A DNA stretch of 64,000 bases from NCBI RefSeq assembly GCF_003788635.1, contig NZ_AYKH01000012.1:62001-126000 (forward strand), read 5' to 3'. The notes below the pieces were generated by a model. That model did not search any database. It had not been told where the DNA came from and saw only the letters and a program-made list of their open reading frames with translations. The position numbers and the translations under genes are program-made. Position 1 is the first letter of the stretch, and the number at the start of each line of letters is the position of its first letter. This document shows, one piece after another, positions 4,692-46,278 of this stretch. The DNA is from Salinisphaera orenii subsp. orenii MK-B5. GTDB lineage: Bacteria > Pseudomonadota > Gammaproteobacteria > Nevskiales > Salinisphaeraceae.

Positions 4692-5384
4692 TCAACGCTT
4701 TTCGTACTGCTTGTTACCGAACATGTTCTCGAAGGCCTCGTTGTCGGTCAGGTCGGTCTTGTGGTCCTGCAGCACGCGCAAGCCGGCCTTGACGTTGTCG
4801 CGGTCGCCGATCATCTCGAACCAGCGGCGGACGTTCGGGTAGTCATCGATGTTCACGCCCTGGGTCTCGGCGCTGCGCAGCCACGGCCAGGTGGCGATGT
4901 CGGCGATGGAGTAGTCGTTGCCGGCCAGGAACTTGTGCTCCGCCAGCCGGCGGTCCATGACGCCGTAGATGCGGTTGGCTTCGTTTTCGTAGCGCTTGAC
5001 GGCGTACTCGATCTTTTCCGGCGCATAACGGTTGAAGTGGTGCGCCTGGCCGAGCATGGGGCCGACGCTGGCCATCTGGAACATGAGCCACTGCATGACG
5101 TCGTGGCGCTTGACCGTGTCCTCCGGCAGCAGGCGGCCGGTCTTTTCGGCCAGGTAGATGAGCATGGCGCCGGATTCGAACATCGCGTACGGCTTGCCGT
5201 TCGGGCCGTCCTGGTCGACCATCGCCGGGATCTTGTTGTTGGGGCTGATCTTAAGGAAGTCCTCGCCGAACTGGTCGCCCTTGCCGATGTTGATCGGGTG
5301 GGCCGTGTATTCCAGCCCGATTTCCTCAAGCATGATGTGGACCTTGTGGCCGTTGGGCGTGGTCCAGGTGTAGAGATCGATCAT
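4692..5384 (-). CDS. Glutathione S-transferase family protein (YghU/YfcG-like)
   Basis: A 230-residue cytoplasmic protein starting MIDLYTWTTPNGHKVHIMLE at the ATG at 5384, with AAGGA just upstream. Residues 1-85 are the thioredoxin-fold glutathione site (TTPNGHK near residue 8, NNKIPAMVD near residue 50, ESGAMLIYLAEKTG near 70). The rest is the all-helical domain with the conserved SIADIATWPW and a WFEMIGDR end. The TPNG motif and length fit the Nu-class YghU/YfcG group, whose characterised members show glutathione-dependent disulfide-bond reductase and peroxidase activity. It is monocistronic, diverging from the NAD(P)-binding gene at 5494. Both could serve oxidative or electrophile stress, but that is inference. 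Confidence 0.88.
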   Translation of the reverse strand: MIDLYTWTTPNGHKVHIMLEEIGLEYTAHPINIGKGDQFGEDFLKISPNNKIPAMVDQDGPNGKPYAMFESGAMLIYLAEKTGRLLPEDTVKRHDVMQWLMFQMASVGPMLGQAHHFNRYAPEKIEYAVKRYENEANRIYGVMDRRLAEHKFLAGNDYSIADIATWPWLRSAETQGVNIDDYPNVRRWFEMIGDRDNVKAGLRVLQDHKTDLTDNEAFENMFGNKQYEKR

Positions 5385-5493
5385 GGTGTGTCCTTGCCTT
5401 GCGGCTTGTGTGGATCCGAACACGGCCTAACGTTGTCTAGATGACGACGCTTTTCAACCCGGCCAACCCGCCACCCCGGCGAAGGAGTGCGCC

Positions 5494-6132
5494 ATGCATG
5501 TATTGATTGTCGGTTCCCACGGCCAGATCGGACAGCGGCTCGTGCGCGTGATGAACGGCACCGAACACACGACCCGCGCGATGATCCGTCACGCCACCCA
5601 GCGCGCCGAAATGCAGTCGCTCGGCGCGACCGAGGTGGTAATCGGTGACATCGAGGGCGACGTAAGCGAGGCACTCGATGGCTGCGACGCCGTGGTGTTC
5701 ACAGCCGGCTCGGGCGCAGAAACGCCGCCGGAAAAGACCGAGGACGTGGACCGCAACGGCGCGATCTCGATCATGGACCAGGCCGTGGCAGCCGGCGTAC
5801 GCCGCTTCGTGATCGTCTCGTCCATGAACGCCGACACGCCCGAGAACGGGCCGGAACACATGCAGCACTATTTCGCGGCAAAGAAGGCGGCCGACGACCA
5901 TCTGCGCTCGACCGATTTGGAATACACAATCGTGCGCCCGGGCCGGCTGACGGACGACGCAGGCACGGGGCGCGTGGCCATCGCCAAGACGCTGAACCGC
6001 TACGGTGAAGTACCGCGCGATGACGTGGCCGAGGTGCTCTACACCGTGCTCAGTTCGCCCAACACCGTCGGCCGCAGCTTCGAATTGCTGGCCGGCGACA
6101 CGCCGATCGAGAAAGCCGTCCGCGGCGTCTGA
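5494..6132 (+). CDS. NAD(P)-binding Rossmann protein (atypical SDR, YwnB-like)
   Basis: A 212-residue protein with GAAGGAG ahead of the ATG at 5494. The N-terminus MHVLIVGSHGQIGQRLV carries the glycine-rich dinucleotide loop. Then come the VVIGDIEGD and DAVVFTAGSG strands, FVIVSSMNAD, and a YFAAKKAAD region giving the Tyr-x-x-x-Lys catalytic pair; YTIVRPGRLTDD is the usual strand-5 end. Members of this atypical short-chain dehydrogenase group (YwnB, YtfG, BVR-B related) act as NAD(P)H sensors or reductases with mostly unknown substrates. The stop codon overlaps the start of the glycosylase gene by one base, so the two are translationally coupled. Confidence 0.82.
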   Translation: MHVLIVGSHGQIGQRLVRVMNGTEHTTRAMIRHATQRAEMQSLGATEVVIGDIEGDVSEALDGCDAVVFTAGSGAETPPEKTEDVDRNGAISIMDQAVAAGVRRFVIVSSMNADTPENGPEHMQHYFAAKKAADDHLRSTDLEYTIVRPGRLTDDAGTGRVAIAKTLNRYGEVPRDDVAEVLYTVLSSPNTVGRSFELLAGDTPIEKAVRGV

Positions 6133-6785
6133 TGGCCGAACGCCCGCACGACGACCGACCGACGAAGCTGGCCTTCGACCCCAACGCGGCCGTGGCGCAC
6201 CTCGCAGCCGCCGATCCGGTGCTCGGCGCGCTCATCGCGCGCGTCGGGCCCTATGCGCCGAGCACTACCGCCGCACCGGACGTCTTCCATTCGCTGATGC
6301 GCGCAATCGTCTACCAGCAGTTGTCCGGCAAGGCCGCGGGCACGATCCATCGGCGTCTGCTCGACGCACTCGGTGGCAGTGACACGCCGGGCGCCGAACG
6401 CATCGCGGCGGCATCCGACGAGACCCTGCGCGGTGCCGGCCTGTCGCAGAACAAGATGCTCAGTCTGCAGGCCCTGGCCGCGGCCCAGCTGGCCGGCGAG
6501 TTGCCGGACGAATTCCGCATCGACGACTACGACGACGCCGAGCTCATCGAGCGCTATGCCGCGATCCGCGGCATCGGCCGCTGGACGGTGGAGATGCTGC
6601 TGCTGTTCCACCTCGGCCGGCCGGACGTCATGCCCATCCACGACCTGGGCGTACGCAAGGGTTACGCGATCACCTACGGGCGTGAGGAGCTGCCCAAGCC
6701 CAAGCAGCTCGAACGCGAGTGCGAGATGTGGCGGCCGTATCGGTCGGTGGGGAGTTGGTATATGTGGCGGGCTACGGAGTTGTAG
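6132..6785 (+). CDS. DNA-3-methyladenine glycosylase II-like (AlkA/HhH-GPD family)
   Basis: A 217-residue enzyme that would remove alkylated bases from DNA to begin base-excision repair. The helix-hairpin-helix is YAAIRGIGRWTVEMLLLF near residue 140, and the catalytic Asp lies in MPIHDLGVRKGYA near residue 164, as in HhH-GPD glycosylases. FHSLMRAIVYQQLSGKAAGT at about residue 50 is the conserved helix of the family. It lacks the N-terminal domain of E. coli AlkA, so it matches the shorter Mag1-like form. The ATG shares a base with the TGA of the preceding Rossmann-protein gene. Its stop is followed by the 605-bp inverted-repeat element. Confidence 0.88.
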   Translation: MAERPHDDRPTKLAFDPNAAVAHLAAADPVLGALIARVGPYAPSTTAAPDVFHSLMRAIVYQQLSGKAAGTIHRRLLDALGGSDTPGAERIAAASDETLRGAGLSQNKMLSLQALAAAQLAGELPDEFRIDDYDDAELIERYAAIRGIGRWTVEMLLLFHLGRPDVMPIHDLGVRKGYAITYGREELPKPKQLERECEMWRPYRSVGSWYMWRATEL

Positions 6786-6894
6786 TTTTAGTTTGGGACC
6801 GCTTGCGCCCGTGCGCGACACCGCCGGATCGATTCAGAGCTCGCGACTTCCAGGCCACCACTGTGTCTGCGCTCACGAGTTTGTCGTACCTCTT

Positions 6895-7499
6895 GTTTCG
6901 CACTGCCGTGCGACTCCCTTTCGTTTGCTTGTCCAAACGAAAGGAAGCAAAGGAAAAGACACCCGGCACAGCGCCGGCTACGCCGGTTCACTCCGATGCG
7001 CAGCGGCGACGGGATGCGGCAAAAACTCGCATCGCTTTGGCGATGCTCAAACAGCTTGCCGCACCGGCGCTGTGCGCCGGACACCCGTCGCCCCTACGCC
7101 TCTCCGTCGCTGCACTGACGGGGCGGAATACAGGCGGCGGGCCAGGCGTTGAGTCTTAATGCGCTACTGCGCTTCGGCTACTGACTGCACTTGCTTCCTG
7201 TCGGCTTACGCCTTCGGCTGAGCCGACCTACAGGAACAAAAGTACGTGACCTTGAGCGAGCGATAGCGAGCTTGCCTGTATTCAATCCCTTGGCGAAGCG
7301 CCGAGCAGCGCAGCACGGACGGGGATGAAGCAGCCGGATGTCTGAGTCGCGCGCAGCGCGGCGAGTTCCGGCTGCGCCCCGGCCGGGCGAGCAGCGCAGG
7401 GTATCGGCGCGTAGCGCCGACGCGAGAGAGGGTGTCGTTTGCTTTGGTCACTTTCATTTGGACAAGCAAATGAAAGTGACTCGCGCAGCAGCGCGAAAC
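6895..7499. repeat. 605-bp element bounded by 70-bp imperfect inverted repeats
   Basis: The left arm (6895-6964) and the right arm (7430-7499) are reverse complements with scattered mismatches. Each arm holds two hairpins of its own: a TTTCGC..GCGA hairpin at the outer edge, and a longer palindrome with the invariant loop CTTGTCC (left 6918-6943, right 7447-7480). Both arms end inward in GACACCC. The centre codes for nothing recognisable. It is packed with short palindromes, such as GCATCGC/GCGATGC and GTCGGC..GCCGAC, and has GAATACAGGC in both orientations. It resembles a non-autonomous mobile repeat of a kind I recall from Xanthomonas and Pseudomonas intergenic DNA. The rest of the gap, 7500-7648, holds a weak hairpin (AGGCTC/GAGCCT) and nothing else. 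Confidence 0.7.
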
Positions 7500-7648
7500 C
7501 CTAATCCGATCAAACCATTATCGTGTATTCAGAACTCGCAGGCTCAATCAGCGAGCCTTTGGGCACTCACCGGTTCGAATTCCCCCGTCTTCAGCCACCG
7601 TGTGCTCGATCCACGACCACGAGCCCCGACCCCTCAAACCACGCCCGA

Positions 7649-36449: not shown

Positions 36450-37862
36450 ATGATCCGTATCCGGAAGAGTATCCGCGTCGCCCGCGGCGTCGCCGACTGT
36501 TATCGCTATCTCGTTGATTTTTCGACCAGCGAGCAATGGGACCCCGCGGTCTACCGGGCCGCCAAGCGCACCCCCGGCGCGCCCGGCGTCGGCACCGAAT
36601 TCGACGTCACGGTCTCGCTGTTCGGCCGTCGGCGCGAGCTACGCTATCGCATCGAATCCCTGGCGCCCGGCACGGCCATCGTGCTCTGCGGCACCGGTGC
36701 CGGCATGGTCTCCGAGGAGCGGATCGAACTGGTCGCCGATGGCGATGCGACGACCGTCGAATACCGGGCCGACTTCACGCTGACGGGCCTGCTCGGCTGG
36801 TCTAAGCCGGCCGCCCGGGCGCTGGTCGAGCGCATGACCGGGGCGGCGCTCGCGGGTCTGCGCGACGCGCTCGAAATCGACACGACCCCGCCGCGCCAGG
36901 GGTGGCGAGACTACATCGCCGACCGCAGCTTGATCGCCGCCGCACCGAGCTTCACCGAACGCGGTTATCTGGCGCTGGACGACAAGGCCCACAGCGAGTT
37001 CATGGACGACCGCGTGGTGGTGGTCACCGGCGCCACCGGTGGGATCGGCGAAGCCATCGCCGCGGAGTACGCCCGCCTGGGCGCGACCACGGTGATCGTG
37101 GGCCGGGACGCGCAGCGTCTGGCGGCGGCCGCGACGCGCGTGCGCGATTTCGCCGGCTGCGCGGCCGAGCGCGTGACCACCGTCGAAGCCGATCTGCTGG
37201 ATCTCGCCCAGACCCGCGCGGCCGCGGACGCACTCGTGGCCGCGCATCCGCGCATCGACGTGCTCGTCAACAACGCGGGCGCCCTGTTCGCCGAACGCGC
37301 GACCACGGCGGACGGCTTCGAGCGCACGTTCGCGATCAACCTGGTCGCGCCGTTCGTGCTGACGGAGGGCCTGATGCCGGCGCTCGGCGCGGCCCGCGGC
37401 CGCGTGGTGAACATGTCCAGCGGCGGCATGTATCTTCAGCCGCTGGTCCTGGCGGACCTGAATTTCGCCGAGGGCCGCTTCGACGGGACCAAGGCCTACG
37501 CCCGCGCCAAGCGCGGCCTGGTCGCGCTGACCCGACACTGGGCACGGCGCTACGCCGAGACCGGCGTGACCTTCAACGCCATGCATCCCGGCTGGGTCGC
37601 GACCGCAGGCGTGGCCCAGTCGCTGCCGGGCTTCAACCGCGCGCTGGGCCGCTTCCTGCGGGATGCCCGAATGGGCGCGGATACCGCCGTGTGGCTGGGG
37701 GCATCGCGGGCCGCGGGTCGAATCAATGGCGAGTTCTTCTTCGACCGCCGGCCGCATCCCACGGCCGTGTTGCCCAACACGCGAGTACGGCCGAGCGAGG
37801 CCCAGCAACTCCACGGCTGGCTGCGCAACGCCACCGGAATGGACGGCCATGGCGTCGGATAA
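36450..37862 (+). CDS. SRPBCC-SDR fusion protein (polyketide-cyclase fold plus short-chain dehydrogenase)
   Basis: A 470-residue cytoplasmic protein with two domains in one frame. Residues 1-145 are a START/SRPBCC hydrophobic-ligand fold (VARGVADCYRYLVDFSTSEQ, then GTEFDVTVSLFGRRRELRYR). Residues about 188-440 are a classical SDR: VVVVTGATGGIGEAIAAEYA, DVLVNNAGALFAERATT, RVVNMSSGGMYLQPL, and the catalytic pair in KAYARAKRGLVALTRHW (Tyr near 350, Lys four later). The MSSGGMY motif points to the DHRS-12-like subgroup. The start is the ATG at 36450. The last 14 bases overlap the UbiB-like kinase gene, so the two are coupled. The SRPBCC part may present a lipid or quinone-like substrate to the dehydrogenase; that is inference. 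Confidence 0.88.
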   Translation: MIRIRKSIRVARGVADCYRYLVDFSTSEQWDPAVYRAAKRTPGAPGVGTEFDVTVSLFGRRRELRYRIESLAPGTAIVLCGTGAGMVSEERIELVADGDATTVEYRADFTLTGLLGWSKPAARALVERMTGAALAGLRDALEIDTTPPRQGWRDYIADRSLIAAAPSFTERGYLALDDKAHSEFMDDRVVVVTGATGGIGEAIAAEYARLGATTVIVGRDAQRLAAAATRVRDFAGCAAERVTTVEADLLDLAQTRAAADALVAAHPRIDVLVNNAGALFAERATTADGFERTFAINLVAPFVLTEGLMPALGAARGRVVNMSSGGMYLQPLVLADLNFAEGRFDGTKAYARAKRGLVALTRHWARRYAETGVTFNAMHPGWVATAGVAQSLPGFNRALGRFLRDARMGADTAVWLGASRAAGRINGEFFFDRRPHPTAVLPNTRVRPSEAQQLHGWLRNATGMDGHGVG

Positions 37863-39135
37863 CAGCGAACAACGCCGTCGGCGCCGGCGCATGTTCGGCG
37901 CCGGCGTACGCACGCTCGGCCGCAGCATGCTGCATACGATGCCCGGCTACGATCGTGCCCGCAGCTGGCAGAAGACCGGCCAGGACTGGTACGACACGCT
38001 GGGCTCGCTCAAGGGCGCGGCGATGAAGCTCGGCCAGATCGCGTCGCAGTATCGCGACTTCCTGCCGGAACAGCTGGTCGATCAGCTCTCGCGCCTGCAG
38101 CGCAACGCCGAGCCTTGGGACTACGCGCGACTCACCCCGGTGCTGGATGCGACCTGGAGCGAAGCCCAGCGCGCCCGCCTGGTCGAGATCGACACCGAGG
38201 CCATCGCCGCGGCGTCGATCGGCCAGGTCCACCGCGGCCGGCTGGACGACGACCGCGACGTCGTCGTCAAGATTCGCTACCCCGGCGTGGCCGACGCGGT
38301 CGACGCCGACATCGACAACCTCGCCCGCCTGCTCAAGCTCTCGCGTTTTCTGCCCGTGCGCGGCAGCGACATCGACGCCGTGCTCGAGGAACTGCGGCTG
38401 CGCTTCATCGAGGAGACCGATTACCGCCACGAGCTCGCCAATCTTCAGACGCTTCGGGCGATGACGCTGCCGGGCTACGTGCTGCCCGAACCGGTATCCG
38501 AGCTGTGTACCGAGGCGGTGCTCGTGACAACGCACGTGGCGTCGCGTCCGATCGCCGAAGCGCCGCCGAGGCTGGGCGCGGCCGTGGTGTCGTCGATCTG
38601 CCGCCAGGTGTTCACCTTCGGCGCCCTGCACGCCGACCCGCACCCCGGCAATTTCGGCGTGACCGACGACGAACGCATCGCCCTGTTCGATTTCGGCTGC
38701 GTGAAATACTTCGACCGGGCGACCCGCGACGCGCTGCGCGATGTGGTCGCTGCCGCCCTGATCGCGGACTGGCACGGCGTGCACGACGCCCTGGAGCGTC
38801 TCGGCGTGGTCCCGGCGGACAGCTGGGCGGACCACGGCCGCACCTACGCCGAGATCTATCGACGGCATGCCGAGGCCACGCTCGAACCGCTGCGCGCCCA
38901 GCCCGACTATGTCTTCGACGACGACGGGTTGATCCAGTCGATCCACGCCGAGATCCGCGAGTCGCTGCGTCACTGGAAACGCTTCAACGCCGCACCGGAG
39001 CTGGTCTTTCTGATGCGCACCCTCAGCGGTCTGTACTGGATCCTGCGCAGCATGAAGGGCCAGGCCCCGCTGATCGCCGAGCTGGAGGCGATCGCGGCGG
39101 GCGCCTACGATCCGCCGGACGACGCCGACGCCTGA
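37849..39135 (+). CDS. UbiB/ABC1 (ADCK) family atypical kinase
   Basis: A 428-residue protein of the atypical kinase family tied to ubiquinone and isoprenoid-lipid metabolism. The family KxGQ motif is in LKGAAMKLGQIASQYRDFLP near residue 45. Later come the alanine-rich loop and nucleotide Lys (AAASIGQVHRGRLDDDRDVV, then VKIRYPG), the catalytic loop LHADPHPGNFGV near 263, and FDFGCVKYF as the DFG equivalent. The ATG at 37849 overlaps the preceding gene by 14 bases. It lacks the C-terminal membrane helices of E. coli UbiB, so it is closer to the ABC1/AarF short forms. Partnership with the SRPBCC-SDR fusion suggests handling of a hydrophobic isoprenoid ligand. Confidence 0.88.
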   Translation: MASDNSEQRRRRRRMFGAGVRTLGRSMLHTMPGYDRARSWQKTGQDWYDTLGSLKGAAMKLGQIASQYRDFLPEQLVDQLSRLQRNAEPWDYARLTPVLDATWSEAQRARLVEIDTEAIAAASIGQVHRGRLDDDRDVVVKIRYPGVADAVDADIDNLARLLKLSRFLPVRGSDIDAVLEELRLRFIEETDYRHELANLQTLRAMTLPGYVLPEPVSELCTEAVLVTTHVASRPIAEAPPRLGAAVVSSICRQVFTFGALHADPHPGNFGVTDDERIALFDFGCVKYFDRATRDALRDVVAAALIADWHGVHDALERLGVVPADSWADHGRTYAEIYRRHAEATLEPLRAQPDYVFDDDGLIQSIHAEIRESLRHWKRFNAAPELVFLMRTLSGLYWILRSMKGQAPLIAELEAIAAGAYDPPDDADA

Positions 39136-40133: not shown

Positions 40134-41465
40134 ATGAATACAATCGATCGCGTCGGATTCGCTGGGTTCTTTCTGGCGTGCCTTTTCCTGGCGTTTATCG
40201 GCGGCACGCTGATCGTGCTGACGCAAGTATTCCCCTATCAGCACATCAACGACGCCTACAAGGCGGCCCACGCGCTGATCGCCCAGGGCGCGATCGATGA
40301 TCGCTACACGCAGACCGACCAGTGGCGCCTCGCCCGCACGACCGAGCGCGGCACGACCATCCACGATCCCGAACGCGCCTATAACGGCTACACGCTATAC
40401 ACCTCGGGCGGCGGCGCCTACGCCTCGCTGATCGACATGGACGGGCGCGAAGTGCATCGCTGGGCGCTACCGTTCAGCCAGGTCTGGGACACGAACCCGA
40501 GCGGCCGGGCGGCCCGGTCCGACGACCTGATCTACTGGCGCAAGGCCATCATGTACCCCGACGGCGATCTGCTGGCGATGTACATCGCCGCCGGCGACAC
40601 GCCCTGGGGCTACGGCCTCGTCAGGCTCGATGCCGATTCCAACGTGATCTGGCGCTACAAGGGCGCGACTCATCACGATATCGACATCGCGCCGGACGGC
40701 CGCGTGATCACCCTGACGCACGAGTTCAGCTACCGCGAATTCCCCGATTTCCCGACGCTGGCCCGACCGTGGCTGAACGATTTCCTGGTCGTCCTCGACG
40801 GCGACACCGGCGAGGAGCAGCGCAGGATCTCGCTGTTCGACGCCTTCTATGATTCCCGCTTTCAGCCGTTGCTGACCGCGATACCCAGCTTTGCGGTCGA
40901 GGATCCGCTGCACACCAACAGCGTGCAGTACATCGACCAAGGCCTGGCCGATCGCTTTGCGCCCGCGAACGGACGCGGCAATCAGGTGCTGCTGTCCTTC
41001 CGTCATCCCGGCGCGCCGGGTCTCGTGGATCTGGACAGCGGCCAGATGACCTGGGCGACACGCGGCGGGTGGCTGGGCCAGCACTTCGCTCGCGCCCTGC
41101 CGAACGGCAACTTCACGCTGTTCGACAACATCGGCAACTTCGAGCCGGGCAACACCACGCGCCTGCTCGAGATCGACCCGAGCACCGACGAGATCGTCTG
41201 GCGCTATCAGGGCACCCGCGATCAGCCCTTCGAAAGCCGGCTGCGCGGCGCGAGCACGACGCTGCCCAACGGCAATCACCTGGTCACCGAGTCCGACGGC
41301 GGTCGGCTGTTCGAGGTGACACCCGAGCGCGACATCGTCTGGGAGTTCGTCAATCCGGTCCGCGAGGGGGATCGGGATCAGTACATACCGGTGGTTTCAT
41401 CCGGCCAGCGCATCAAACCAGAGGCGCTTGATCCGGCCTTCCGTGCCCGACTCAACACTCCCTAG
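40134..41465 (+). CDS. Membrane-anchored arylsulfotransferase (ASST)-like beta-propeller
   Basis: A 443-residue protein with one N-terminal membrane helix (FAGFFLACLFLAFIGGTLIV, residues about 9-28) and a periplasmic propeller. Motifs shared with ASST enzymes, which move sulfate between phenols without PAPS: THHDIDIAPDGRVITL, PLHTNSVQYID, VLLSFRHPGAPGLVDLDSGQ, and GQHFARALPNGNFTLFDN. The His of the last motif lines up with the ASST sulfohistidine position. Repeated W-x-x-G blades (VIWRYKGA, EIVWRYQGT, IVWEFVNP) match the propeller. It leads a four-gene run including a PAPS-type sulfotransferase. Whether it transfers sulfate or only binds is inferred from the histidines. Confidence 0.8.
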   Translation: MNTIDRVGFAGFFLACLFLAFIGGTLIVLTQVFPYQHINDAYKAAHALIAQGAIDDRYTQTDQWRLARTTERGTTIHDPERAYNGYTLYTSGGGAYASLIDMDGREVHRWALPFSQVWDTNPSGRAARSDDLIYWRKAIMYPDGDLLAMYIAAGDTPWGYGLVRLDADSNVIWRYKGATHHDIDIAPDGRVITLTHEFSYREFPDFPTLARPWLNDFLVVLDGDTGEEQRRISLFDAFYDSRFQPLLTAIPSFAVEDPLHTNSVQYIDQGLADRFAPANGRGNQVLLSFRHPGAPGLVDLDSGQMTWATRGGWLGQHFARALPNGNFTLFDNIGNFEPGNTTRLLEIDPSTDEIVWRYQGTRDQPFESRLRGASTTLPNGNHLVTESDGGRLFEVTPERDIVWEFVNPVREGDRDQYIPVVSSGQRIKPEALDPAFRARLNTP

Positions 41466-41475
41466 GAGGCATGTC

Positions 41476-41778
41476 ATGGATCAGAATCGTTCCAACGGCA
41501 AGCACATCGCGTACATACGCGCCCCACTCACCATCGCCATCATGCTCGCACCGCTGGCGGCGCAGGCCTATGTCGGCCCCGGCGCCGGTCTGAGCCTGCT
41601 GGGTGCGCTCTGGGGCGTGATCGCGGCCATCGGCGCCGCCCTGCTGTTCGTCATCCTCTGGCCGCTGCGGCGCATGATGCGGCGCCGACGCGAGACGGCC
41701 GCACAGCAGTCGCGGCCCGACGATACGGCCCCCGGCGCGGAGCCGCACGACCGTTCGAAGTCGTCGCACCACTCGTAA
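41476..41778 (+). CDS. Small GPGAG-motif membrane protein
   Basis: A 100-residue protein with AGGAGG upstream of the ATG at 41476. A first hydrophobic segment (APLTIAIMLAPLAAQA) looks like a cleavable signal or helix. It is followed by YVGPGAGLSLLGALWGVIAA and a second helix (IGAALLFVILWPL). The basic tail (RRMMRRRRETAAQQ) should stay in the cytoplasm, and the last 25 residues are polar. The AYVGPGAG sequence recurs in small proteins of polysaccharide and sulfotransferase loci as I recall, but no function is known. It lies ten bases after the arylsulfotransferase-like gene, so it is part of that operon. Confidence 0.72.
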   Translation: MDQNRSNGKHIAYIRAPLTIAIMLAPLAAQAYVGPGAGLSLLGALWGVIAAIGAALLFVILWPLRRMMRRRRETAAQQSRPDDTAPGAEPHDRSKSSHHS

Positions 41779-41848
41779 CGACATCGGGCCGCGCCAGCGC
41801 CCGCCGCGGTCAAGACGGCGGCGCAGCGCGTGCCCGACAGATCCGGAG

Positions 41849-42574
41849 ATGCCGATGGGGCTGTTCAATCTGCCCGCGCCCTTGTTCAATATCGTCGACG
41901 CCGGCATGGCAGGCGTCCTGCCGGCCGCGGCCCGCCTCGCGGTCTGGGCCGCGATCGGCGCGATCGGGACCATGCTGCTCTACAAAATGCTCTCGCCACA
42001 AGCGCGCATCGGCGAGGCCAAGCGCCGGGCGAAGGCGGCACGCCAGCGGCTGAACGCTTTCGACGGCGATTTCGCCGATGCCGGCCCCTTGATCCGCGAT
42101 CAGTTCGCGAGCGCGTTCCGCCACGTCGGTCTTGTGGTTCCGGGCACCATGCTGGCCGTTCTGCCCTTGTTGTGCCTACTGCTCTGGGCCGAGACGCATT
42201 ACGGCCAGGCGCTGCCCGAGCCCGGCCAGGCGCCGGCGATCACCATCACGCCCGCGGAGGGCTTCACCGGCGAATGGCGAGCCGCCGATGAGGCGCCGCA
42301 TGTGCGGGTGACCCGAAACGGCGAGACGATCGCCGACATCGCCATGGTGGCGCCGGTGGGCGTGGTCACGAAACAACCCTGGTGGCATTGGCTGGCGGCC
42401 AACCCGCTCGGCTATCTGCCGGACGACGCCGCCGTGGAGCAGATTCGCATCCAACTGCCCGAGCGGCACTATCTGTCGTTCGGGCCCGACTGGATGCGCG
42501 GCTGGCTGGCGATATTCATCCCGGTGATGTTCATCGTCTCGCTGGCCATCTACCGATGGGCGAAAATCGAATGA
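41849..42574 (+). CDS. Three-helix membrane protein with EMC3/YidC-like layout
   Basis: A 241-residue membrane protein, function unknown. TM1 (about 28-46, AVWAAIGAIGTMLLYKML) is followed by a charged helical segment (ARIGEAKRRAKAARQRLNAF). FRHVGLVVPGTMLAVLPLLC then enters TM2 (about 96-113). A beta-rich periplasmic part (about 125-205) and TM3 (about 218-236, LAIFIPVMFIVSLAIYRW) end the chain. TM, charged coiled helix, then P..LA.LPLL..W is the layout of EMC3/TMCO1/DUF106 insertase relatives; the likeness is by eye. Start is the first of two close ATGs. The stop overlaps the sulfotransferase start (ATGA). Confidence 0.7.
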   Translation: MPMGLFNLPAPLFNIVDAGMAGVLPAAARLAVWAAIGAIGTMLLYKMLSPQARIGEAKRRAKAARQRLNAFDGDFADAGPLIRDQFASAFRHVGLVVPGTMLAVLPLLCLLLWAETHYGQALPEPGQAPAITITPAEGFTGEWRAADEAPHVRVTRNGETIADIAMVAPVGVVTKQPWWHWLAANPLGYLPDDAAVEQIRIQLPERHYLSFGPDWMRGWLAIFIPVMFIVSLAIYRWAKIE

Positions 42575-43746
42575 CCACGAGACAGGACACACCGCGCACG
42601 CCCCGATCCCGTCCCAGCGAAAGCGCGGTCGCCGGGTTCGCCGTACCGACCTGGATGCATCGCCTCGGGGGCTGGCAACACCGTCATCCGCAGGCTGCGA
42701 TCCGGCTCGGCAACTTCGATACCCGCGTCGCGGGCGACGCCATCGCGCGGATCTCGGTCGACCGGCCGATCTATATCGCCGGTATCGCGCGGGCCGGCAC
42801 CACGATCGTGCTCGAGACGCTGGCGGCGCATCCGGCGGTGGGCACCCACCAGTACCGCGATTTCCCTCCGGTGATGACCCCCTGGCTCTGGGACCGGTGG
42901 CTCGCGCGGGTGCCCCAGCGCGCCGAGACCGCGGCCGAGCGCGCGCACGGCGACGGCATCGCCGTTACGTCGCGCAGCCCGGAAGCCTTCGAGGAAGTCG
43001 TCTGGATGGCGTTCTTCGACGCCATTCACGACCCGCAGCAGAGCAACGTGCTCGATCGTACGAGTTCGAATCCCGAATTCGAGCGCTTCTACAGCGAGCA
43101 CATCCGCAAGCTGCTGGCGATTCGCGGCGCCAGCCGCTATGCGTCGAAAGGCAACTACAACCTGATGCGACTGGCGTACCTGCAGACGCTTTTCGCGGAT
43201 GCGCGCTTCGTGCTGCTGATCCGCGACCCGGTCTGGCACATCGCCTCGCTGATCAAGCAGCAGACGCTGTTCGAGGCGGGTGAAACCGCCCATCCGCGGG
43301 CGCTCGAGCACATGCGTCGCGTCGGCCATTTCGAGTTCGGCCTCGACCGACGCGCGATTCATACCGGCGACGATGCGGCAGCCGAACGCATACGCCAGCT
43401 TTGGGCGGACGGCCACGAGGTTGCGGGCTGGGCGCACTACTGGGCCACGGTCTACGGCGCGCTGGCCGACCAACTCGACACCGACGCCGCACTGCGCGAC
43501 GCCTGTCTGGTCGTCCGCTACGAGGATCTGTGCGGCGACGCCGAGGAAACGCTGCGCCGCGTGCACGCGCACTGCGCGCTGCACATCGGCGACGACGAGC
43601 GTTCACGCGCGGCGGCGCGCCTGCGGCTGCCGGGCTACTATCGCCCCGCCTTCAGCGACGAGGAATACGCGACGATTCGGGACATCACGGCCCCGGTCGC
43701 CGCGCGGTTCGGTTACGGCACGGATACGGTGGACACGCCACCCTGA
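42571..43746 (+). CDS. PAPS-dependent sulfotransferase family protein
   Basis: A 391-residue protein. The 5'-phosphosulfate-binding loop is IYIAGIARAGTTIVLETLAA near residue 68. RFVLLIRDPVWHIASLIKQQ near 212 is the 3'-phosphate-binding strand with the conserved Arg-Asp-Pro, and CLVVRYEDLCGDAEETLRRV near 313 is the later conserved block. The ATG at 42571 overlaps the previous stop, so translation is coupled. It would move sulfate from PAPS to a sugar, lipid or peptide acceptor in the cytoplasm. Sharing an operon with a periplasmic arylsulfotransferase-like propeller is unusual because the two chemistries act on opposite membrane sides. Confidence 0.85.
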   Translation: MTTRQDTPRTPRSRPSESAVAGFAVPTWMHRLGGWQHRHPQAAIRLGNFDTRVAGDAIARISVDRPIYIAGIARAGTTIVLETLAAHPAVGTHQYRDFPPVMTPWLWDRWLARVPQRAETAAERAHGDGIAVTSRSPEAFEEVVWMAFFDAIHDPQQSNVLDRTSSNPEFERFYSEHIRKLLAIRGASRYASKGNYNLMRLAYLQTLFADARFVLLIRDPVWHIASLIKQQTLFEAGETAHPRALEHMRRVGHFEFGLDRRAIHTGDDAAAERIRQLWADGHEVAGWAHYWATVYGALADQLDTDAALRDACLVVRYEDLCGDAEETLRRVHAHCALHIGDDERSRAAARLRLPGYYRPAFSDEEYATIRDITAPVAARFGYGTDTVDTPP

Positions 43747-43796: not shown

Positions 43797-44204
43797 TCAG
43801 TCCGAGATCGCGGCGACGCCGGCCTTGGCCGTCTGGGCATCCTGCTCCGGCTTGACGCCGGAGACGCCGACGGCGCCGGCCAGCCCGCCGCCGACCATGA
43901 CCGGCACGCCGCCGGTCATGGTGGCCTTGAGCTCGGGCACCGACAGAAAGGCCGCGCGGCCGCCGTTGATCATGTCCTCGAACGCCTGCGTTTCCTTGCC
44001 ACCGAGCGCCGCGCTGCGCGCCTTTTCGGTCGCGACGTAGGCCCCCATCGGCGCACAGCCGTCCAGGCGCCGCAGGGCCAACGCGTGACCGCCGTCGTCG
44101 ACCACGGCGATGGCCACCTTCCAGCCCTGGCTTTCGGCCTCTTTCTGGGCCGCATCGAGGATGCGTTCGGCGTCGGCGAGCGAGAGCACGGTCTTGTCTT
44201 GCAT
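43797..44204 (-). CDS. GlcG/HbpS-family protein
   Basis: A 135-residue protein of the GlcG/HbpS fold. The ATG at 44204 gives MQDKTVLSLADAERILDAAQ. VAIAVVDDGGHALALRRLDG (residues about 30-49), ATEKARSAAL, and VPVMVGGGLAGAVGVSGV near the end are the family blocks. HbpS binds haem and GlcG is of unknown role within glycolate operons. There is no signal peptide. It lies downstream of L-lactate permease on the same strand, after a terminator, consistent with the frequent neighbourhood of GlcG with lactate/glycolate uptake. It may be transcribed from read-through or its own promoter. Confidence 0.88.
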   Translation of the reverse strand: MQDKTVLSLADAERILDAAQKEAESQGWKVAIAVVDDGGHALALRRLDGCAPMGAYVATEKARSAALGGKETQAFEDMINGGRAAFLSVPELKATMTGGVPVMVGGGLAGAVGVSGVKPEQDAQTAKAGVAAISD

Positions 44205-44273
44205 GGGAACAGTCCTTGGAATCGGTGTCTGGAACGACCTGCATTCTACCGAAGGCCGAACCGGTTTCACGAA

Positions 44274-44302
44274 CAAAAACGGCGGCCGCGAGGGCCGCCG
44301 TC
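44274..44302 (-). terminator. Rho-independent terminator after lactate permease gene
   Basis: On the minus strand ACGGCGGCC and GGCCGCCGT form a 9-bp stem followed by TTTTTG. It lies 26 bp past the stop of the permease gene. Confidence 0.85.
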
Positions 44303-44327
44303 AACGCCGGATACTAAGGAGTGGCGG

Positions 44328-46031
44328 TTATCCGCCGCCGGCCATCAGGCCATCGACCACACCGATGCCGTAGAAGGCGATCAGGCCGATGATGCCGCTC
44401 AACAGGCAGTAGTAGAGCGTCGGCAGGATCGTCTTGCGCATGGTCGTGCCTTCACGGCCCAGCAGTCCGACCGTCGCCGAAGCCGCCACCACGTTGTGGA
44501 TGGCGATCATGTTGCCGGCAGCCGCGCCGACGGCCTGCAGAGCGACCATCATCGCCGTCGACAGGCCGAGCGTGGCGGCCACGTTGAACTGGAAGTCCGA
44601 CAGCATGAGGTTCGACACCGTGTTGGAACCGGCGATGAAGGCACCGAGCGCGCCCACGGCCGGTGCGAACAGCGGATAGATATGTCCCACGCCATCGGCC
44701 ACGAGCTGCGCCATGGCCACCGGCATCGACACGATGTCCGATCCGTTCACCCCCGAGTTGATCAGGATGCGGACCATCGGGATCGTGAAGATCAACACGA
44801 AGCCCGCGCCGAGGATGGTGTTGGTCGACTCCTTGAACGCCGCCCCCATCGCACTCGCGCGCATCCGATGCAGAAAGAACGTGATGAGCACGGCAATGCA
44901 GATGATACCGCCCGGCAGGTACAGCGGCTGGATGGAACCCGAGACATCAGTCTGCCCCAGGATATTGCTCCAGCTGATCGCCACCGACTGGAGCGCGTTG
45001 GTGATCGGCTCCACGGTGCGCGAAATGACCAGCAGAATGGCCAGCAGCACGTACGGCGCCCAGCCCATGGGCGGCGTGAGCGGCGTGCGCCCGGCCACGT
45101 GATCGGCCTTGATCTCCATGTTGCCGATCCATTCCGCCGGCCACTGGCTCGACTCGGGGAAATCCCAGGGCTTCTTCGGGATGAGAAAACCGCGCCGCGC
45201 CGCCGGCACGACGATGGCCAGGCCGACCATGGCGCCGATCATGGACGGGAACTCCGGTCCGAGAAAGACGCCGGCCAACGCATAGGGCACGACGAAACTT
45301 ACACCCGCAAAGAGTGCGAAAGGCGCCACGGCCAGACCGTCGCCCCAGGATTTGCGCTCACCGAAGAAGCGCGCCATCACGGTCACCATGATCAACGGCA
45401 TGAGGAAGCCGCAGATCGCGTGCGTGATCGCCACCTGCGAGGTGATGAGCTGGAAGTAGGCATCCCAGGATGAACCGTTGGCCGCAAGCTCCTCGGTGAT
45501 GCTCGATTTGTGCAGGCCACCGCTGACACCCACTATGATCGGCGTGCCGACCGCGCCGAAGGACACCGGCGTGGACTGGATCATCATGCCCACCACGACG
45601 GCCGCCAGCGCGGGAAAACCGAGCGCGACCATGAGGGGCGCGGCGACCGCCGCCGGCGTGCCGAAACCCGAAGCCCCCTCGATGAAGCAGCCGAACAGCC
45701 ACGCCACGATGATCGCCTGAATGCGCCGATCCGGGCTGATCCCGGAAAAGCCGTTGCGAATCGCCGCGATACCCCCCGAATGCTTGAGCGTGTTCAACAG
45801 CAGGATGGCACCGAAGATGATCCAGAGGATCGATATCGTGAGCATCAGCCCCTGAAGACTGGAGGCCACCACGCGTGTGAACGTCATGTCCCAGGCCAGG
45901 AGTGCGATCAGCACGGTCACGATGAACACGACCGGCATGGCCGTGCGTGCCTGCATTCGAAAGCCGATCAGCATCACACCCGCCAGCACCAGCGGTGTGA
46001 ATGCCAGAAGCGACATCAAGATTGAAGTCAT
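44328..46031 (-). CDS. lldP: L-lactate permease
   Basis: A 567-residue inner-membrane transporter of the LctP family, importing L-lactate (often also D-lactate and glycolate) with protons. The ATG at 46031 ([20 protein letters not shown]) follows GGGAAG. About 13 to 14 hydrophobic helices are evident. Family marks are [20 protein letters not shown] near residue 112, [20 protein letters not shown] near 152, and [20 protein letters not shown] near 460. [17 protein letters not shown] is near the end. No lactate dehydrogenase or LldR gene is adjacent; the diverging neighbour is an HD-GYP gene. Confidence 0.95.
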
Positions 46032-46278
46032 AGCGTCTTCCCTGTGGATCCCCGAATTGGTTCGGCCGACTGCCTCATCCGGCACGCCGACGCAGATGAT
46101 TGAATGACCTCGGCCAGAGGTCGCGTAAGCTAATCATGAAAGATCGACCGTCGACAATGCGGCTTTGGTCCACCCCGGCCTGCGATTTTTTATCCGCCAC
46201 GCCAACGACGTGCGCACCACGGACGCACCTGCCTCATAATCGTGCCGGGGCGGCGAGCGGGCATGCGGCGAGGTAGCG

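What the first reader, a model, noticed from the sequence alone, without database searches (positions are those of the whole stretch)
40134..43746. Four-gene putative sulfation system combining an arylsulfotransferase-like propeller, two novel membrane proteins and a PAPS sulfotransferase
The order is arylsulfotransferase-like propeller with its catalytic-type histidine, small GPGAG membrane protein, three-helix membrane protein and PAPS-type sulfotransferase. Spacing is short, with an ATGA overlap at the last junction. PAPS enzymes act in the cytoplasm and ASST-like enzymes in the periplasm. A model is that a carrier is sulfated inside, brought across or held by the two membrane proteins, and the sulfate is moved to an acceptor outside by the propeller. 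I know no described system of this make-up.
Basis: partly seen in the sequence, partly recalled or inferred. Interest (0 to 1): 0.72.

Follow-up and report, generated by a model that had tools for sequence, protein, structure and literature searches.

The report
Membrane-spanning bacterial sulfation relay cassette
Four neighbouring genes that recur together across many marine and salt-loving bacteria appear to form a machine that attaches sulfate to a carrier inside the cell and hands that sulfate on to something outside it, using an undescribed membrane protein that may share its fold with the proteins that insert other proteins into membranes.

Summary
The four genes are real and form a conserved system. 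In a Salinisphaera-type genome they encode P1, a membrane-anchored arylsulfotransferase (ASST) propeller with the ASST active-site residues invariant; P2, a GPGAG single-helix protein; P3, a three-helix membrane protein in no family library; and P4, a PAPS-type sulfotransferase. P3 relatives lie in 64 loci (Gamma- and Alphaproteobacteria, Desulfobacteraceae, Sumerlaeota), nearly always with P2 and P4. P1 is beside them in 38 loci; in 15 others an AlkP-superfamily phosphodiesterase replaces it; all seven with neither have P1 elsewhere in the genome. In 274 Gammaproteobacteria, P1 (strict) and P3 occur in the same seven genomes. Fusions P3::P4, AlkP::P3 and P2::AlkP tie the parts together, with topology consistent with cytoplasmic P4 and periplasmic P1/AlkP.

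P1's nearest solved structure is Cpz4, the second enzyme of the caprazamycin two-step sulfation (PAPS enzyme makes a phenol sulfate, ASST passes it on). P3's model resembles TMCO1 and Get1 (Oxa1 superfamily), suggestive but unproven. Carrier, acceptor and the role of P2/P3 are inferred. Judged a new variant of a known kind.

The parts
40134..41465 (+). P1: ASST-like propeller with an N-terminal membrane anchor (helix 3-31), predicted periplasmic; active-site set H181, H260-x-N262, R290, H317
   Evidence: PF14269/PF05935; AF2 pLDDT 91; best structural match Cpz4 9kf6 Z 32.5 over 317 residues, then E. coli ASST 3ets Z 26.4; residue mapping to Cpz4 H139, H212, N214, R239, H267; invariance
41464..41469 (+). 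AGGAGG ribosome-binding site of P2, overlapping the P1 stop codon
   Evidence: read directly
41476..41778 (+). P2: small protein with signal-type leader, conserved A-Y-(V/I)-G-P-G-A-G motif, one membrane helix and a basic tail
   Evidence: no family at cut-off; found in 55 loci; fused to AlkP in Woeseiaceae-type loci
41849..42574 (+). P3: three membrane helices (26-48, about 93-117, 220-240), cytoplasmic charged hairpin (51-92), periplasmic beta domain (about 119-205) with conserved WWNxLxGNPxGYLP motif; N-out, C-in
   Evidence: AF2 pLDDT 90.5; structural matches 7tut_8 (entry containing TMCO1) Z 10.1 and Get1 8odu/8odv Z 6.6/6.5; conservation; charge distribution
42571..43746 (+). P4: PAPS-type sulfotransferase; 5'-phosphosulfate loop GIARAGTT (71-78) and 3'-phosphate residues R218 and S226 conserved
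   Evidence: PF13469; nearest solved relatives are tyrosylprotein sulfotransferases; invariance in 41 sequences; fused to P3 in L130

Best explanation
The four genes encode one membrane-bound, two-step sulfation relay. P4 (cytoplasm) moves sulfate from PAPS to a membrane-soluble, probably phenolic or lipid, carrier. P3 with P2 holds P4 at the membrane and lets the sulfated carrier reach the outer leaflet, perhaps through an Oxa1-like hydrophilic groove. P1 (periplasmic face, membrane-anchored) takes the sulfate onto its histidine H317 and passes it to an envelope acceptor such as a glycan or glycolipid. In a sister version an AlkP-superfamily phosphodiesterase takes P1's place. SHOWN: the genes, their co-inheritance, fusions, folds by prediction, conserved active-site residues. 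INFERRED FROM FAMILY KNOWLEDGE: PAPS use by P4 and ping-pong sulfohistidine chemistry by P1. INFERENCE ONLY: the carrier, the trans-membrane hand-over, the acceptor, the role of P2 and P3.
For: Co-inheritance: P2-P3-P4 in nearly all of 64 P3 loci, P1 adjacent in 38; P1 linked even when rearranged to convergent (L223, L224). P1 found elsewhere in all seven genomes whose cassette lacks it and AlkP (E 1e-129 to 1e-180), but absent from four of five AlkP-type genomes, with one weak partial hit of 8e-10 in the fifth. In 274 Gammaproteobacteria, P1 at E<1e-140 and P3 mark the identical seven genomes, and P4 at E<1e-140 marks these plus one contig-edge case (Fisher 5e-14 by genome, 1e-8 by genus, not corrected for descent). 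Fusions P3::P4 (L130), AlkP::P3 (L117, L132), P2::AlkP (L123, L125, L127, L129, L133); the AlkP::P3 and P3::P4 joins agree with P3 N-out/C-in. Remote cassettes keep P1, P2, a three-helix part and P4 although the three-helix part has no detected similarity to P3: separate ORF in L243, in front of the sulfotransferase in L242 and L048. Active sites: P1 matches Cpz4 residue by residue; P4 keeps its PAPS-binding residues. Precedent for PAPS enzyme to phenol sulfate to ASST: Cpz8/Cpz4 (PMC4257720, PMC6731281). APS kinase is in the genome.
Against: No biochemical evidence of any kind. No carrier-synthesis gene (such as the type III PKS of the caprazamycin cluster) is in the cassette. No acceptor gene recurs next to it: flanking genes are lineage-specific. 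If AlkP hydrolyses rather than transfers, the 'transfer outside' step need not be general. P3's link to the Oxa1 superfamily rests on a VIA Z of 10.1 for a helical model, below the tool's caution level of about 13, and Foldseek alone found nothing significant; sequence evidence is weak. P1 paralogues outside the cassette show that this ASST family can also work without it.
Confidence: 0.5

Rival explanations
1. P4 makes a finished sulfated lipid or glycan; P2/P3 export or hold it; P1 or AlkP works separately at the surface, trimming, recycling or moving sulfate or phosphate from other esters (no shared carrier).
For: P1 paralogues exist without the cassette; in seven genomes P1 lies at another locus; PF01663 enzymes are commonly hydrolases (family knowledge).
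Against: P1 is retained in every tested genome that lacks AlkP; AlkP::P3 and P3::P4 fusions join outer enzyme, membrane module and P4 into one path; strict P1/P3 co-distribution.
Confidence: 0.25
2. P3 is a dedicated Oxa1-type insertase or assembly factor for P1 and P2 (or a dock for P4), not a path for a carrier.
For: Structural resemblance to TMCO1 and Get1, both protein-insertion factors; P1 and P2 are simple membrane proteins made beside it.
Against: P3 has a large conserved periplasmic domain; direct fusion to P4 and to AlkP suggests a stoichiometric, substrate-level partnership; the genome has its own YidC.
Confidence: 0.15
3. The genes modify or detoxify phenols: P4 sulfates incoming phenols and P1 swaps sulfate between phenols.
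For: ASSTs act on many small phenols (PMC13426309); some hosts, such as Alcanivorax relatives, are hydrocarbon degraders (general knowledge).
Against: Soluble phenols need no conserved three-helix module fused to the sulfotransferase; Cpz4, the nearest solved relative, is reported to prefer a sugar hydroxyl (PMC13426309).
Confidence: 0.08
4. Chance neighbourhood of unrelated genes.
For: None beyond the absence of experiments.
Against: Co-occurrence across classes and phyla, three kinds of fusion, rearranged but retained linkage.
Confidence: 0.01

Closest known systems
Caprazamycin two-step sulfation (Cpz8 PAPS sulfotransferase plus Cpz4 arylsulfate sulfotransferase)
   Same: A PAPS-dependent sulfotransferase and a PAPS-independent ASST in one cluster; Cpz4 is the best structural match of P1 (Z 32.5, 21% identity) with the same active-site residues; in the known case sulfate passes from PAPS to a phenol and then to the acceptor.
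   Different: Actinobacterial antibiotic cluster with a type III PKS making the phenol (title of Tang et al. 2013, from memory); no P2, P3 or AlkP partners known there; carrier and acceptor here are unknown; here P1 is membrane-anchored in Gram-negative bacteria.
Periplasmic ASST of Escherichia coli CFT073 (3elq/3ets, with DsbL/DsbI)
   Same: Propeller fold (Z 26.4 over 326 residues) and the His / His-x-Asn / Arg / His set; periplasmic side.
   Different: E. coli ASST has an N-terminal beta-sandwich and a disulfide and is encoded with DsbL/DsbI (PMC13426309); P1 has a membrane anchor and is encoded with P2-P3-P4.
Oxa1 superfamily (TMCO1, Get1, EMC3, YidC, archaeal MJ0480)
   Same: Predicted three-helix core with a cytoplasmic charged hairpin between helices 1 and 2, N-out/C-in; top three structural rows are an entry containing TMCO1 and two Get1 entries.
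   Different: No significant sequence match; large periplasmic beta domain between helices 2 and 3; genetic partners are sulfotransferases, not translocation factors.
AlkP-superfamily type I phosphodiesterases (PF01663)
   Same: Takes P1's place in one lineage of cassettes and is fused to P2 or P3.
   Different: Substrate in this setting unknown; fold unrelated to ASST.

Membership tests
ASST (arylsulfate sulfotransferase) | Sequence family PF14269/PF05935 above cut-off | tested here: met
   75.4 and 32.2 bits against cut-offs 27 and 24.2
ASST (arylsulfate sulfotransferase) | Propeller fold like 3ets and Cpz4 | tested here: met
   Z 26.4 and 32.5
ASST (arylsulfate sulfotransferase) | Active-site His252, His356, Asn358, Arg374, His436 (E. 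coli numbering) | tested here: met
   H181, H260, N262, R290, H317 aligned with Cpz4 and invariant in A4; equivalence to the E. coli numbers is by motif and via Cpz4, not by a direct residue alignment
ASST (arylsulfate sulfotransferase) | Sulfohistidine intermediate and aryl sulfate donor use | not testable with these tools
   needs enzyme assay
ASST, E. coli subtype | N-terminal beta-sandwich domain before the propeller | tested here: not met
   P1 begins with a membrane helix (3-31) and a helical linker
PAPS-dependent sulfotransferase | PF13469 with 5'-PSB loop and 3'-PB Arg/Ser eight residues apart | tested here: met
   68.6 bits against 27; R74, G76, T78, R218, S226 invariant
PAPS-dependent sulfotransferase | PAPS supply in the genome | tested here: met
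   APS kinase PF01583 1.6e-69
Caprazamycin-type two-step relay | PAPS sulfotransferase and ASST encoded together | tested here: met
Caprazamycin-type two-step relay | Phenol-making type III PKS in the cluster | tested here: not met
   none among the four genes or the six neighbours scanned with Pfam; not searched genome-wide
Caprazamycin-type two-step relay | Sulfated carrier shown to be the ASST donor | not testable with these tools
   needs mutants and mass spectrometry
Oxa1 superfamily | Three-helix core, hairpin between helices 1 and 2, N-out/C-in | tested here: met
   AF2 model and charge tally; prediction only
Oxa1 superfamily | Significant structural match | tested here: inconclusive
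   Ranks 1-3 are the TMCO1-bearing entry and Get1 twice, but Z 10.1/6.6/6.5 for a helical model; Foldseek not significant
Oxa1 superfamily | Sequence family PF01956 or PF02096 above cut-off | tested here: not met
   no match in P3; PF02096 at best 0.012 in 5 of 61 members; PF01956 gives nothing in this genome; MJ0480 only at E 0.26
Oxa1 superfamily | Insertase or scramblase activity | not testable with these tools
   needs reconstitution

The most novel reading that the evidence does not exclude
P3 is a bacterial Oxa1-superfamily protein turned from protein insertion to moving a sulfated lipid carrier across the inner membrane, so that PAPS made inside can sulfate envelope molecules outside: a trans-membrane sulfate relay with two interchangeable outer enzymes (ASST or AlkP). 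Insertases of this superfamily are reported to scramble lipids through their groove (PMC10491306).
Probability: 0.27. Interest if true: 0.88.

Novelty: new variant of a known kind. Interest (0 to 1): 0.68.

Why it matters
PAPS exists only in the cytoplasm, and for most bacterial ASSTs no natural acceptor or physiological role has been identified (PMC13426309). A conserved cassette that pairs an ASST with its own PAPS enzyme and a membrane module would supply the missing donor and make the question directly testable in culturable hosts (Salinisphaera, Salinicola, Halomonas, Alloalcanivorax). If P3 is an Oxa1-type protein, it would also widen what that ancient fold is used for.

Tried and rejected
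Family libraries for P2 and P3 (Pfam, NCBIfam, PHROGs) gave nothing above cut-off. Foldseek of P3 against the PDB gave no hit below 0.001; the VIA second look gave the TMCO1-bearing entry and Get1. hhalign of the P3 profile with TMCO1 alone (15.1) and with a YidC alignment (20.8) lay within the range of 108 membrane decoys (mean 14.1, max 24.7); the MJ0480 fragment (29.0) exceeded them but had been picked as the best PDB hit, so it is not independent. The three-helix part of the remote L048 sulfotransferase shows no similarity to P3. The P3 hit in G099 (E 5e-4 over 77 residues) has no cassette around it and was dropped. Searching neighbours for a shared acceptor or carrier gene gave only lineage-specific genes; dTDP-rhamnose genes beside two alphaproteobacterial cassettes and an ABC1 kinase beside the Salinisphaera ones were not general. 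Promoter and terminator scans did not exceed shuffles. Literature searches for a described system of this make-up found only the caprazamycin relay. A first idea that the whole thing lacked any precedent was dropped after the Cpz4 match.
Full report
WHAT IS THERE. The window lies in a 3.67-Mb genome whose nearest named relative at this locus is Salinisphaera halophila (95% identity in P3). P1 is an arylsulfotransferase (PF14269, PF05935) and P4 a sulfotransferase (PF13469); P2 and P3 belong to no curated family.

IS IT MORE THAN CHANCE. Among 100 relatives, P3 was found in 18 genomes and P1 in 19, mostly side by side. A scan of 84,980 species genomes with the P3 profile gave 64 loci in Gammaproteobacteria (Salinisphaera, Salinicola, Halomonas, Alloalcanivorax, Pseudomonas, Stutzerimonas, Marinobacter, Wenzhouxiangella, Dokdonella, Woeseiaceae and others), Alphaproteobacteria, Desulfobacteraceae and Sumerlaeota. 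P2, P3 and P4 stand together in nearly all; P1 is adjacent in 38, an AlkP-superfamily phosphodiesterase (PF01663) is next to P3 in 15, seven have neither nearby, and four are cut by contig ends. No locus has both P1 and AlkP.

COMPLEMENTARITY. All seven genomes with neither enzyme at the cassette carry a full-length P1 elsewhere (E 1e-129 to 1e-180); of five AlkP-type genomes tested, four have no P1 at all and one has only a weak partial hit. In an even draw of 274 Gammaproteobacteria, P1 at E<1e-140 and P3 occur in the same seven genomes, and P4 at E<1e-140 in these plus one where P4 sits at a contig end. Fisher's test gives 5e-14 by genome and 1e-8 by genus; descent is not corrected for, and the strict P1 threshold was chosen after seeing that weaker P1 hits (below 1e-62 in score rank) lack P3. 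Two of these species hold P1 convergent to P2-P3-P4 rather than in front, so linkage survived rearrangement. Two further genomes (G255, G167) with more distant P1 also have a P4-type gene beside it.

FUSIONS AND TOPOLOGY. P3 is fused to P4 in Sumerlaeota L130; AlkP is fused to P3 in L117 and L132; P2 is fused to AlkP in five loci, L123, L125, L127, L129 and L133. P3's N-terminal segment has almost no positive charges while its hairpin and C-terminus are positive, so N-out/C-in: AlkP at the N-terminus is then periplasmic and P4 at the C-terminus cytoplasmic, as their chemistry needs. In remote cassettes the set P1, P2, three helices, P4 persists with a three-helix part without detected similarity to P3 and without the beta domain: a separate ORF in L243 and an N-terminal extension of the sulfotransferase in L242 and L048. 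Helix placement there rests on hydropathy only.

P1. AlphaFold2 gives a confident propeller (pLDDT 91). The best of all PDB matches is Cpz4 of caprazamycin biosynthesis (9kf6, Z 32.5, 317 residues, 21% identity), then the E. coli ASST entries (Z about 26). The HMM alignment pairs P1 H181, H260, N262, R290, H317 with Cpz4 H139, H212, N214, R239, H267. In E. coli ASST the site is His252, His356, Asn358, Arg374, Thr501 with transient sulfation of His436 (PMC13426309). By family knowledge P1 should therefore be an active sulfate-transfer enzyme; this is not assayed.

P4. The 5'-phosphosulfate loop (71-78) and the 3'-phosphate pair R218/S226 are conserved; the nearest solved relatives are tyrosylprotein sulfotransferases. 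The genome has APS kinase.

P3. The model is confident (pLDDT 90.5): amphipathic helix 10-21, membrane helix 26-48, charged hairpin 51-92 running into helix 2, beta domain 131-201, helix 220-240. The VIA second look ranks chain 8 of 7tut first (Z 10.1, 135 residues, 3.5 A), an entry that contains TMCO1 (that chain 8 is TMCO1 is inferred from its length), then Get1 twice (Z 6.6, 6.5); unrelated coiled coils follow close behind. Foldseek alone is not significant. Sequence signals point the same way but weakly: MJ0480 as top PDB profile hit at E 0.26, PF02096 in 5 of 61 members at best 0.012, hhalign above decoys only for MJ0480. I hold Oxa1 membership at about 0.6 and do not file P3 as a member.

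HOW IT PROBABLY WORKS. The known caprazamycin route is PAPS to a triketide pyrone by Cpz8, then phenol sulfate to the antibiotic by Cpz4 (PMC4257720, PMC6731281). I propose the same two chemical steps split across the inner membrane: P4 sulfates a membrane carrier, P3/P2 hold P4 and give the carrier access to the other leaflet, and P1 (or AlkP) moves the group to an envelope acceptor. Oxa1-type insertases have been reported to scramble lipids (PMC10491306), which makes the step plausible but not shown. Carrier and acceptor are unknown; no neighbour recurs that would name them.

VERDICT. Observation confirmed; interpretation partly supported and strengthened; the two-enzyme principle is known, the membrane-spanning cassette with P2, P3 and the AlkP alternative is not described in what I could search. 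The library holds open-licence papers only, so an earlier description elsewhere cannot be excluded.

Noticed in passing
L117 5925-8774; L132 5532-8708; L123, L125, L127, L129, L133: AlkP-superfamily phosphodiesterase fused to P3 or to P2 in place of P1: an enzyme of a different fold taking the ASST's position in the cassette.
   Followed up: yes
L130 4750-9878: Sumerlaeota cassette with two tandem P1 copies, P2, and a single 651-aa open frame joining P3 and P4.
   Followed up: yes
L242 3397-6523; L243 3142-6214; L048 8803-12069: Remote cassettes with ASST, GPGxG protein and sulfotransferase in which a minimal three-helix module without P3 sequence similarity sits before or inside the sulfotransferase.
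   Followed up: partly
L127 8755-10851 and ten further loci: A sulfatase-family (PF00884) protein, with TPR repeats in the one scanned, recurs near P3 in AlkP-type cassettes.
   Followed up: partly
L112, L116 about 4900-7500 (minus strand): dTDP-rhamnose synthesis-like genes lie next to two alphaproteobacterial cassettes, a possible hint at a polysaccharide acceptor.
   Followed up: no
L054, L059, L060, L063, L071: Salinisphaera relatives carry extra P1 paralogues (46-62% identity) outside any cassette.
   Followed up: no
window 37663-39135 and 43797-46085: Neighbours of the cassette: ABC1-type kinase, Vut_1 transporter, HbpS-like protein and L-lactate permease; seen only within the genus.
   Followed up: partly
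L073 8001-8717 (record titled Endozoicomonas sp. G2_2; L005 is the same place): The P3 reading frame is interrupted by one in-frame TGA while the rest of the cassette is intact; the genome is placed in the window's own genus, so the record's name looks wrong.
   Followed up: no
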